64,000 nucleotides of DNA, taken from positions 1 to 64,000 of the forward strand of contig NZ_JACJKB010000013.1 in assembly GCF_016900375.1 (NCBI RefSeq), written 5' to 3'. The notes beneath the pieces were generated by a model that saw only the letters and a list, made by a program, of their open reading frames with translations, did not search any database and had not been told where the DNA came from. The stretch is from Collinsella tanakaei (GTDB lineage Bacteria; Actinomycetota; Coriobacteriia; Coriobacteriales; Coriobacteriaceae). This document shows, in pieces, positions 33,521-37,369 of this stretch. How positions within the stretch are numbered: position 1 is the first letter of the stretch; every line of letters starts with the position of its first letter. The translations under genes and the position numbers were made by a program.

Positions 33521-34246
33521 ATGGCGGCAACGCGCGTGCTGATCGTCGAGGATGATGCCGATATCAACCAGATCGTCGCCACGCATCTGGCGCGGCACGG
33601 CATGGACTGCACACAGGCGTTTTCAGGCAGCGAGGCGCGGCTGCTCGCCAGCGGCGACGAGTTTCCCTTTGACATCGTGGTCTCCGACCTTATGCTGCCG
33701 GGCCTGAATGGTGAGGAGCTCGTCGCCCTCATCCGCGAGCGCGACGCGCGCGTACCCATCATCGTCATCTCGGCGCGCACGGCGGCATCTGACCGCATCG
33801 ACCTGCTGAAGCTCGGGGCGGATGACTACCTTACCAAGCCGTTCGACCTCGATGAGCTCGTGGCGCGCATCGAGGTGCAGCTACGGCATCGCGGGCTTGC
33901 CGGTGCGGGCAACGATGCCGGTGGCGCAACGGCCGGCGCGTCGTCGAGCGTGCTGACCTTCCGTGCCTGGGAGCTCGATCCCGAGGCGCATACGTTCACG
34001 GTCGCGGGCGAGCCCGTTGAGCTCACACGCATCGAGTTCAACATCCTGCACGCGCTCATCTCCCACCCCAAGCGCGTCTTTTCCAAACAGGAGCTGTTCG
34101 AGCGTGCATGGGGAGAGCCCTATGCTGCCGACGACAACACGGTGAACGTGCACCTGTCAAACATCCGCGCGAAACTCAAGGCGAGCGGCACCGACGGCTA
34201 CATCAAAACCGTGTGGGGAATGGGCTTCAAGCTGCAGGAAGACTAA
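33521..34246 (+). CDS. OmpR-family response regulator
   Basis: A 241-residue protein. The receiver domain has acidic D11/D12 and phospho-acceptor D56 (IVVSDLMLPG), K in DYLTKPFD, then a Trans_Reg_C winged helix (about 150-238; VELTRIEFNILHALISHPKR, then VNVHLSNIRAKLK). It heads a five-gene plus-strand module with ABC ATPase, small ORF, permease and kinase, like BceRS/SalKR-type detoxification loci. A family 2 hairpin lies after its stop and could attenuate reading into the transporter genes. Confidence 0.92.
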   Translation: MAATRVLIVEDDADINQIVATHLARHGMDCTQAFSGSEARLLASGDEFPFDIVVSDLMLPGLNGEELVALIRERDARVPIIVISARTAASDRIDLLKLGADDYLTKPFDLDELVARIEVQLRHRGLAGAGNDAGGATAGASSSVLTFRAWELDPEAHTFTVAGEPVELTRIEFNILHALISHPKRVFSKQELFERAWGEPYAADDNTVNVHLSNIRAKLKASGTDGYIKTVWGMGFKLQED

Positions 34247-34393: not shown

Positions 34394-35416
34394 ATGAACG
34401 CGATCGATATCCGCGGTCTCACCAAGCGGTACGGGAAAACCTTCGCCGTCGATCACCTGAACATGCGGGTGGTCTCAGGCGACATCTACGGCTTCGTGGG
34501 CAAAAACGGCGCCGGCAAGTCGACGACCATGAAGATGATCGCCGGCCTCACGACGCCGACCTCAGGCGAGCTCGCACTGTTCAACAGCGTGAGCGCCGGC
34601 CAGGGCCGTGCCGGCAGCTTCTCGGCTGCGCCCTCGCGCATCGGCGCGCTTATCGAGGAGCCGGGTGTCATGCCCAACTTCTCGGCAGGCGAGAACCTGA
34701 TGATGAAGGCGCTTGCCATGGGCGTCGTGCGTCCGCGCAAGCAGGTGGTCGAGCTGCTTCAGCTCGTGGGTCTCGAGGCGGCGGGCTCGCGCAAGGTCAA
34801 GAAGTTCTCGCAGGGCATGAAGCAGCGCCTGGGTCTCGCGCTTGCGCTCGTTGGCTCGCCCGACCTGCTGCTGCTCGATGAGCCGTTCAACGGCATGGAC
34901 CCCGAGACCACGCGCGACCTGCGCCGTGCGCTCGTGCGGCTCAACCAGGAGCGCGGCGTGACCATCGTGATCTCGAGCCACGTGCTCGACCAGCTCATGC
35001 GCGTGTGCACGCGCTTCGGCGTCATCGCGGCAGGCCGCATGGTGCGCGAATTCACCGATGAGGAGCTGCACGCCACCTGCGGAAGCTCGGTGCGCGTACG
35101 GACCGCCGATCCCGCCCGCGCGCTGGCAATCCTCGAGGAGCGTCTGGCGGGAGCGACCTTCCGCATGGAACCCGACCAGGCCATCGTGGTCAGCGGGGGA
35201 GCGCGGAGTGCCGCCGCATCCTTCGGCGGCGCATCGACCGATCCTGCGGCATCCGGCGCGCCTTCGGTCGAGGACGTGTCCCGCATCCTGCACGAGGCAG
35301 ACCAGGTGGTGCTCGAGCTTTCGGTGCTCGAGCGCGACATCGAGGATTACTTCGTGGAGCTCATGGACGGCGGCGCCTCTGCGGCGCCCGGTCCGAGCCC
35401 GGTCGATAGGAGGTAG
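34394..35416 (+). CDS. ABC transporter ATP-binding protein (BcrA-like)
   Basis: A 340-residue ATPase with Walker A GKNGAGKST near 37-45, signature KFSQGMKQRLGLA, Walker B LLLLDEPFNGMDP and SSHVLDQL. The C-terminal extension of about 120 residues includes a low-complexity A/S/G linker near 285. The ATG follows GGGAGCAACC. It is part of the regulator-exporter-kinase module and pairs with the permease 78 nt downstream. Confidence 0.9.
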   Translation: MNAIDIRGLTKRYGKTFAVDHLNMRVVSGDIYGFVGKNGAGKSTTMKMIAGLTTPTSGELALFNSVSAGQGRAGSFSAAPSRIGALIEEPGVMPNFSAGENLMMKALAMGVVRPRKQVVELLQLVGLEAAGSRKVKKFSQGMKQRLGLALALVGSPDLLLLDEPFNGMDPETTRDLRRALVRLNQERGVTIVISSHVLDQLMRVCTRFGVIAAGRMVREFTDEELHATCGSSVRVRTADPARALAILEERLAGATFRMEPDQAIVVSGGARSAAASFGGASTDPAASGAPSVEDVSRILHEADQVVLELSVLERDIEDYFVELMDGGASAAPGPSPVDRR

Positions 35417-35418
35417 TC

Positions 35419-35490
35419 GTGCTCGATTGCCTGATCGACCTCCTCGTCGAACTCGTACCGTCCCTCTTCTCGCGTCGCAAAGGCAGGTAA
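35419..35490 (+). CDS. 23-residue small ORF within the exporter operon
   Basis: GTG at 35419 is preceded by TAGGAGGTAGTC (GGAGG 5-6 nt upstream) and reads MLDCLIDLLVELVPSLFS then RRKGR to TAA at 35488-35490, 4 nt before the permease ATG. The peptide is an amphipathic leucine-rich helix with a basic end. It exactly fills the only gap between ATPase and permease, and its strong ribosome-binding site supports real translation. It could be a transporter subunit, a sensor ligand for the module or a translation-coupling leader. No homologue is recognised. Confidence 0.5.
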   Translation: MLDCLIDLLVELVPSLFSRRKGR

Positions 35491-35494
35491 CACC

Positions 35495-36379
35495 ATGCTG
35501 AACCTCATCAAATCCGACCTCTACCGTATCACTCGCCCGCGCGGCCTGCGCGGCAGCTTCTGGCAGTACGGCATCGCGATCCTTGCCGCCTACGGGATCG
35601 TCGTGGCACTCGTGGCCTTCGCGAACAGCCAGGTGTTTCTCGACATGACGGGCGGCACCATCGGCGATGTGGTGACGAAGACCTCGCTCACGGTGTATTT
35701 CGCCGACATGCTGAACGGCCTCGTGCCGCTCTGCGTGGCGTTCATGGCGGTTGAGCACGCGCTTGCCGAGTTTAAGAACGGCTACATCAAATCTGTGCTC
35801 TCGGCGCGCTCGGGCCGCCTCTCGTACATCACGGGCAAGCTGCTGTTCGTGGGCGTGCTGTCTGCGCTCATGATTATCTTCTCGACGCTCGTCGTGCTGG
35901 CGTGCCTGCCGGTGATGACCGCCGGTCACCCTGTCTTCAACACGGTGGACGGACCGCTCGAGGTCATTGGCTGGTTCGTAGGCTTCTGGCTCAACACCTG
36001 GGCGCTTGCCGCGTGCTCGCTCATCCTCGTGTACGCGACCCGCGTGAGCCCGGTGAGCTATATCGGCGCCTTCTGCTTCTGCGCCTCTGTTGTGCCGCAG
36101 ACGCTCATGGGCCTCGCGTACTCCACCGGCGGTATCCTGAGCGTGCTGCAGCCGATTCGCCCGGTGCTCGAGACCCTCGCCGCTTGGATACCCTCCACGG
36201 CGCTCAGCAATCTGAGCCAAGGCGGGCAGCTGTTCCTCAACGCGTCGCTTGGCATCTGGGGAGAGACGGGCTACGCCTTCACCATCGCCCCCGGCATCCA
36301 GACGGTACTCACGGGCATCATCTGGATCGTTCTCGCCGGCGCTCTCGTGCTCGCCATCTCTCGCAAGCGCGATATCTAG
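35495..36379 (+). CDS. ABC-2 permease of the two-component-linked exporter
   Basis: A 294-residue protein with six helices, the first at about 25-45 and the last near 270-290. An extended extracytoplasmic loop lies between helices 1 and 2, as in lantibiotic-immunity permeases (SpaE/MutE-like). It starts immediately after the small ORF and is followed by a stem-loop and then the kinase gene. Confidence 0.85.
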   Translation: MLNLIKSDLYRITRPRGLRGSFWQYGIAILAAYGIVVALVAFANSQVFLDMTGGTIGDVVTKTSLTVYFADMLNGLVPLCVAFMAVEHALAEFKNGYIKSVLSARSGRLSYITGKLLFVGVLSALMIIFSTLVVLACLPVMTAGHPVFNTVDGPLEVIGWFVGFWLNTWALAACSLILVYATRVSPVSYIGAFCFCASVVPQTLMGLAYSTGGILSVLQPIRPVLETLAAWIPSTALSNLSQGGQLFLNASLGIWGETGYAFTIAPGIQTVLTGIIWIVLAGALVLAISRKRDI

Positions 36380-36417
36380 TGGGACAATAGAGGCGGTCCC
36401 TATCCTTAGGGAAGTAC

Positions 36418-36460
36418 GGGGCAGCTCCCGCGCATAAGCAGCGCCGGGAGGTGCCCCTTT
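36418..36460 (+). terminator. Intrinsic terminator-like hairpin before the kinase gene
   Basis: GGGGCAGCTCCCG and CGGGAGGTGCCCC (one mismatch) with a 14-nt loop followed by TTTC. Because the kinase ribosome-binding site GGAGGAG follows at 36470, this may reduce kinase expression relative to the exporter. Confidence 0.55.
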
Positions 36461-36478
36461 CAGATAACTGGAGGAGCC

Positions 36479-37369
36479 ATGGACACCAGCCTGCTTGCCA
36501 TCGTCCTGCTCGTGGTCGGGTTGGGCATGGGCGCGCTGCTTGCCGGGACGCGTTACCTGGGCGAGCTGCGCCGCATCGCGCGCTTTCTGCGCGGACGCGA
36601 TCCGCAGAGCAACGCACGCGTGACGGCGGGCGGGGCTCCGGGCGTGACGGATCTGGCCGACGCCGTCAACGCCGAGCTCGACCGCAGTGCGCAGGCGCAT
36701 ATCGAAGCGGTGCGTCACCAGCAAGAGTTTCAGCGCGATCTCTCGGCGCTCTCGCACGACATTCGCACGCCGCTCATGGGCGCCAAGGGCTACCTGCAGC
36801 TTGCGCGCGACGAGGAAGATCCTGGCCAGCGCGCCCGGCACCTGGATGCCGCGGCGGCGCGCATCGACGCCACGACGGAGCTGCTCGACCAGCTTTTCGC
36901 CTACACAAAGTCGACCGATCCCGACCTGGCGCTCAAGATGGAACCCGTGGCGCTTAAGCCCTTTGTGGAAGAGATCCTGCTCGGGCAGTATCCGGCTTTC
37001 GAGGAGCGCGGCTGGGAGCCGCAGATCGCCTTCGAGGATGCCGCGGCGACCCTCGAGGCCGACCGCGAGGCGCTCGCGCGCATCCTCACGAACCTTGTGG
37101 TCAATGCGTTGCGCCACGGCTCGTCGGCGCCGATGATCTCCCAGAGAACGGAAAACGGCCGGGTCCTCCTTGGCATATCCAATGCCGTGGAAGACCCGAC
37201 CGCTATCGATCCGGATCGGTTATTTGATCGCTTTTACCAGGCGGATTCCGCCCGCGGCGCCAAGGGGAGCGGCCTTGGTCTATCCGTCGCGGCAAACCTC
37301 GCCCGCGCCATGGGGATGGAGCTTTCCGCCGAGCTCGCGGGCAACATGCTCACCATCACGCTCGGGTGA
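36479..37369 (+). CDS. Sensor histidine kinase (HisKA type)
   Basis: A 296-residue kinase with one N-terminal helix (about 5-22) and a short linker. The H-box is LSALSHDIRTPL with H93, and the HATPase_c domain has N-box NLVVNALRHG, DRLFDRFYQAD and KGSGLGLSVA. The lack of a sensor domain fits kinases that sense through their cognate exporter. GGAGGAGCC precedes the ATG. The TGA stop is the first codon of a reverse family 1 repeat. Confidence 0.9.
   Translation: MDTSLLAIVLLVVGLGMGALLAGTRYLGELRRIARFLRGRDPQSNARVTAGGAPGVTDLADAVNAELDRSAQAHIEAVRHQQEFQRDLSALSHDIRTPLMGAKGYLQLARDEEDPGQRARHLDAAAARIDATTELLDQLFAYTKSTDPDLALKMEPVALKPFVEEILLGQYPAFEERGWEPQIAFEDAAATLEADREALARILTNLVVNALRHGSSAPMISQRTENGRVLLGISNAVEDPTAIDPDRLFDRFYQADSARGAKGSGLGLSVAANLARAMGMELSAELAGNMLTITLG

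What the first reader, a model, noticed from the sequence alone, without database searches (positions are those of the whole stretch)
35419..35490. A 23-residue ORF exactly between ATPase and permease genes of a two-component-linked exporter
It has the best ribosome-binding site of the operon (TAGGAGG), starts 3 nt after the ATPase stop and ends 4 nt before the permease ATG. The predicted peptide is amphipathic with a hydrophobic LLVELVPSLF face and a basic RRKGR end. It could be a small membrane subunit of the exporter, a peptide that the exporter or kinase senses, or a regulatory leader. Such genes are missed by standard length cut-offs.
Basis: partly seen in the sequence, partly recalled or inferred. 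Interest (0 to 1): 0.65.

Follow-up and report, generated by a model that had tools for sequence, protein, structure and literature searches.

The report
Tiny conserved protein beside exporter permease
A 23-residue open reading frame wedged between the two genes of a bacterial export pump is a real gene: gut bacteria of the family Coriobacteriaceae keep it, under selection on its protein sequence, in front of this pump's membrane gene, and it is probably a tiny helper subunit of the pump.

Summary
The ORF is real. At 35419-35490, a GTG codon 2 nt past the ATPase stop opens 23 codons ending 4 nt before the permease ATG. It has the operon's strongest Shine-Dalgarno site. The genome belongs to the Collinsella/Enorma family (Coriobacteriaceae).

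A small ORF precedes the permease in all 24 family genomes with a close permease homologue. Profiles of the peptide find none in the 34 genomes without the permease. Related operons in other families of the order lack it.

Codon patterns show purifying selection on the peptide (nonsynonymous/synonymous about 0.2 in the window type). Gap length varies, but the frame is kept.

Two forms exist: type A, a transmembrane helix, and type B (the window), an amphipathic helix, both with basic tails. One genome carries both in tandem; every core-group operon keeps at least one. In one species the small gene comes first in the operon, before the permease, with the ATPase after it; so it follows the permease.

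Best reading: a tiny membrane accessory subunit of an ABC-2 exporter related to LanFEG/CprABC but with one permease instead of two. That it is coding is well supported; its function is inferred. An exported PSM-like peptide and a kinase modulator remain open.

The parts
33521..34246 (+). OmpR/PhoB-type response regulator, 241 aa
   Evidence: Pfam Response_reg 5.3e-26 and Trans_reg_C 6.5e-25
34394..35416 (+). ABC exporter ATPase, 340 aa, LanF-like
   Evidence: Pfam ABC_tran 3.7e-28; best NCBIfam TIGR03740 galliderm_ABC 2.6e-56, 190.8 bits, below its 309.75 cut-off
35407..35413 (+). Shine-Dalgarno of the small ORF (TAGGAGG), inside the 3' end of the ATPase gene
   Evidence: duplex energy -15.5 kcal/mol, strongest of the operon
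35419..35490 (+). small gene, 23 aa, type B: (M)LDCLIDLLVELVPSLFSRRKGR
   Evidence: a small ORF is conserved at this place in 24 of 24 family genomes with a close permease homologue; codon-level purifying selection
35479..35490 (+). AAAGGCAGGTAA: C-terminal KGR* codons doubling as Shine-Dalgarno of the permease
   Evidence: sequence; most relatives share it
35495..36379 (+). ABC-2 (type V) permease, 294 aa, six hydrophobic segments, MutG/PmtD-like
   Evidence: AlphaFold2 pLDDT 83; Foldseek best matches NosFY 7o0y and PmtCD 6xjh; TIGR03733 MutG up to 3.9e-5 in homologues; six segments
36479..37369 (+). sensor histidine kinase, 296 aa, one N-terminal transmembrane segment
   Evidence: Pfam HisKA and HATPase_c; a single hydrophobic segment, residues 5-23

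Best explanation
The ORF encodes a translated, selected small protein. It is made by strong initiation just after the ATPase stop, and its end carries the permease's Shine-Dalgarno. The protein is a short membrane-associated helix (transmembrane in type A, amphipathic in type B) with a basic, probably cytoplasmic end. It most likely acts as an accessory subunit that binds the six-helix permease dimer of a one-permease LanFEG-like exporter and tunes its assembly, stability or substrate range. Shown: conserved coding frame, selection, strict linkage to the permease, two alternative forms. Inferred: translation itself, membrane insertion, binding to the permease, and the effect on transport.
For: Purifying selection in the stated frame: type B pS 0.48, pN 0.10, ratio 0.20; codon-position differences 36/4/69; shifted frames give ratios 0.93 and 5.73. 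Window versus L037: 11 nt changes but 2 residue changes, 7.1 expected, P 0.0002. Linkage: peptide profiles hit only beside the permease, E <= 4.7e-8 (type A and the long form) and <= 1e-12 (type B), next hits 5e-4 and 0.08; present in 24/24 genomes with a close permease and 0/34 without a permease match, Fisher 8e-17. It follows the permease: in L058 it is the first gene of the operon, with the ATPase after the permease. Type A is transmembrane by hydropathy (KD19 1.7-2.3; octanol -0.9 to -5.5) with a basic end. Types A and B' both occur in L040, and every operon of the core group keeps at least one. A polar residue (D, N or S) sits at position 7 of both forms.
Against: No expression, localisation or binding data. 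The window's type B peptide is not a convincing transmembrane segment (octanol +1.8, three acidic residues). Related exporters in other families of the order work without it, and G038's second permease and G056's ATPase-linked permease lack it. The frame is broken in L014. Homology of the window's own peptide with type A is not significant (3.6 bits, within the shuffle range).
Confidence: 0.55

Rival explanations
1. Leaderless amphipathic peptide exported by the adjacent transporter, like the phenol-soluble modulins exported by PmtABCD, acting as a signal or effector and perhaps sensed by the kinase.
For: Type B is a 23-24 aa amphipathic helix; the ATPase matches PmtC (3.6e-36), two permease homologues match PmtD weakly, and the permease model matches PmtCD; the Shine-Dalgarno is very strong.
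Against: Type A forms at the same place are ordinary transmembrane helices with a basic end; single copy in the genome; residues conserved rather than diversifying.
Confidence: 0.15
2. Translational coupler or leader: translation of the ORF, not its product, delivers ribosomes to the permease start.
For: Tight spacing and a shared Shine-Dalgarno at the 3' end in most operons.
Against: Synonymous change far exceeds nonsynonymous; a type A peptide is kept in Enorma and C. massiliensis, where it ends 36-146 nt before the permease; spacings of 2, 3, 4 and 5 nt give no fixed frame; no significant RNA structure; related families simply overlap the two genes.
Confidence: 0.12
3. Small-protein modulator of the histidine kinase (MgrB-like) that reports transporter state to a kinase with one membrane helix and no extracellular sensor.
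For: The operon is linked to a two-component system, and the kinase has one membrane segment and no evident sensor domain.
Against: Similar short kinases accompany exporters that lack the small ORF; the small ORF stays adjacent to the permease, not the kinase.
Confidence: 0.12
4. Decaying relic of a lost second permease (LanE position), not functional.
For: It sits where the first permease lies in the two-permease operons of another family of the order; a 47-aa ORF in L057 looks like a permease N-terminus plus one helix.
Against: Purifying selection; the type A profile does not match permease N- or C-termini above noise.
Confidence: 0.03
5. Chance ORF in a GC-rich spacer.
For: About 1.3% of random 78-nt spacers would hold such an ORF.
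Against: 24 of 24 orthologous operons and codon-level selection.
Confidence: 0.01

Closest known systems
LanFEG / CprABC lantibiotic-resistance exporters with two-component systems (PMC5786555)
   Same: LanF-like ATPase (TIGR03740 best match), MutG-like permease, linked response regulator and kinase
   Different: One permease instead of two; a 23-30 aa ORF lies where the other permease would be
PmtABCD phenol-soluble modulin exporter
   Same: Permease fold (PmtCD among the best structural matches) and ATPase similarity; type B resembles a short amphipathic peptide
   Different: No evidence of export; most relatives' forms are transmembrane
AcrZ (PMC7267776) and WatS1 (PMC10355033), small single-helix partners of efflux pumps
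   Same: Small membrane peptides that alter a pump's substrate range; comparable size class
   Different: Their partners are RND pumps; no sequence relation was found or tested, and here the gene lies inside the pump's operon
KdpF / CydX, small subunits of membrane complexes (from general knowledge)
   Same: Tiny gene in the operon of its complex, single helix
   Different: Different complexes; sequence similarity not tested beyond the Pfam and NCBIfam scans

Membership tests
LanFEG/CprABC exporter | LanF-type ATPase | tested here: inconclusive
   TIGR03740 is the best NCBIfam match (2.6e-56) but scores 190.8 bits against a 309.75 cut-off
LanFEG/CprABC exporter | Two different permeases (E and G) | tested here: not met
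   One permease in the operon; a small ORF in place of the other
LanFEG/CprABC exporter | Linked two-component system | tested here: met
   Response regulator upstream, kinase downstream
LanFEG/CprABC exporter | Protection against lantibiotics | not testable with these tools
   Needs a phenotype
Type V (ABC-2) exporter | Six-helix ABC-2 permease fold | tested here: met
   Foldseek best matches NosFY and PmtCD, probability 1.0, E about 2e-3; six hydrophobic segments
Small single-helix pump accessory proteins (AcrZ-like) | Short transmembrane helix | tested here: inconclusive
   Met for type A; the window's type B is amphipathic with octanol score +1.8
Small single-helix pump accessory proteins (AcrZ-like) | Physical binding to the pump | not testable with these tools
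   Only genetic linkage shown
Phenol-soluble modulins | Leaderless amphipathic helix exported by a Pmt-type transporter | tested here: inconclusive
   Amphipathic helix present, export untested

The most novel reading that the evidence does not exclude
A family-specific class of exchangeable micro-subunits: a one-permease LanFEG-like exporter whose specificity or activity is set by a 23-30 aa helix that exists in a transmembrane and an amphipathic version, duplicated in tandem and then reduced to one or the other in different species.
Probability: 0.25. Interest if true: 0.75.

Novelty: new variant of a known kind. Interest (0 to 1): 0.55.

Why it matters
Small accessory proteins are known for RND pumps and a few other membrane complexes, but I know of none described for LanFEG/CprABC-type exporters, and no Pfam or NCBIfam model matches this one. 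If it is a subunit, antimicrobial-peptide-type exporters of common gut bacteria carry a component that, at 23 codons, I expect gene finders to skip (a length cut-off known from general knowledge, not tested here). The natural A/B difference between near-identical operons (window and L034, 92% permease identity) offers a ready-made experiment on what such a helix does.

Tried and rejected
Origin from the permease's first or last helix: the type A profile does not match permease ends above noise. Programmed fusion with the permease: the spacing puts the ORF in different frames in different species. RNA structure over the junction: z -0.2 to -1.7. Natural small-permease fusion in L014: degenerate, with no in-frame ATG start seen, read as a broken gene. 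Pfam and NCBIfam found nothing for the peptides, long forms included. Literature searches on small proteins in Collinsella or Coriobacteria and in lantibiotic exporters found no description of it (only open-licence papers are held).

Full report
What is there. The sequence holds the reported ORF exactly: GTG at 35419, TAA at 35488-35490, 23 residues, 2 nt after the ATPase stop and 4 nt before the permease ATG. The operon reads response regulator, ATPase, small ORF, permease, histidine kinase. Duplex energies with an assumed standard anti-Shine-Dalgarno tail rank the small ORF's site first at -15.5 kcal/mol; its operon neighbours lie between -9.2 and -10.4.

Is it a gene? Permease searches gave orthologous operons from the family, and a scan of named genomes identified them as Collinsella (C. 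tanakaei, C. ihumii, C. massiliensis and others), Enorma, Ca. Limicola and Ca. Coprousia. In all the close operons a 23-30 codon ORF precedes the permease. With the codons that overlap the permease's Shine-Dalgarno removed, the window's type shows pS 0.48 against pN 0.10, with differences concentrated in third positions (36/4/69); the second amphipathic group (B') gives a ratio of 0.27 and the transmembrane group 0.55, while shifted frames give 0.93 or more. Placing the same number of changes at random predicts far more residue changes than seen, for example 7.1 against 2 for window versus L037 (P 0.0002). Pairs are not independent, so these values are descriptive, but the direction is the same in four separate sets.

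Linkage. Profiles of the two peptide types, searched in the genomes of the family (type B) and of the order (type A), hit only beside the permease, with a wide gap to the next chance hits. The 24 family genomes with a close permease homologue all have one; the 34 without any permease match have none. The profiles were built from members of this set, so the count is not fully independent, but read the same ORFs directly. In 17 related operons of other families of the order the ATPase and permease genes overlap or abut and there is no small ORF, so it is a Coriobacteriaceae trait within this sample. In G038 (L058) the small ORF opens the operon with its own strong Shine-Dalgarno, directly before the permease, and the ATPase follows. 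The small gene therefore belongs to the permease, not to the junction.

Two forms. Type A (for example MIDIVINVAVIGALVYLLSSGRKGR) is a transmembrane helix by hydropathy; type B (the window) is amphipathic, with D3, D7 and E11 on one face. Both have a polar residue at position 7 and a basic end. L040 carries A then B' in tandem. On permease and ATPase trees type A is the outer state, and both types are scattered within the inner group; the window (B) and L034 (A) share 92% of permease residues. Tandem duplication followed by loss of either copy explains this; exchange by recombination is also possible. The match of the type A profile to L040's B' peptide exceeds 500 shuffles, whereas that to the window's own B peptide does not, so descent of A and B from one gene is likely but not proven. 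More distant operons carry 51-67 aa forms with the same C-terminal helix (L011-L013), and L015 and L016 carry 79-90 aa ORFs; L014 is broken.

The exporter. The permease model (pLDDT 83) matches NosFY and PmtCD best, and homologues match MutG and ABC2_membrane_4 models weakly. It has six hydrophobic segments, enough for a homodimer without a second permease. The ATPase is closest to the lantibiotic-protection family but below its cut-off. CprABC-type systems have two permeases (PMC5786555); this one has one, so it is related to, not a member of, that group.

Mechanism. The best-supported account is a tiny membrane accessory subunit of the permease. Precedents are AcrZ on AcrB (PMC7267776) and WatS1, which appears to shift an efflux pump's specificity (PMC10355033). 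The C-terminal basic codons double as the permease's Shine-Dalgarno in most operons, but Enorma and C. massiliensis keep a basic end although the ORF stops 36-146 nt earlier, which separates the protein constraint from the RNA constraint. Kinase modulation and export as a PSM-like peptide cannot be excluded by sequence alone.

Verdict. The function is a reasoned inference at about 0.55. New variant of a known kind.

Noticed in passing
L040, within the 171 nt upstream of 3577: Two different small ORFs in tandem (MIDAVINVAVVGAIAYLLATGRKR and MFDLIIDAVTAAIEIVFSGKKGK) between ATPase and permease.
   Followed up: yes
L057:4470-4610: A 47-aa ORF that looks like a permease N-terminus followed by one type A-like helix, before two tandem permeases with no ATPase directly upstream.
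   Followed up: partly
L015 and L016, between ATPase and permease: ORFs of 79-90 aa with hydrophobic stretches in place of the small ORF, in distant paralogous operons.
   Followed up: no
window 34562-37117, minus strand: An 851-aa open frame runs antisense across the ATPase, small ORF, permease and most of the kinase; probably a by-product of GC-rich codon use.
   Followed up: no
L058:3035-6200: Operon in the order small ORF, permease, ATPase, second permease; the second permease has no small ORF.
   Followed up: partly
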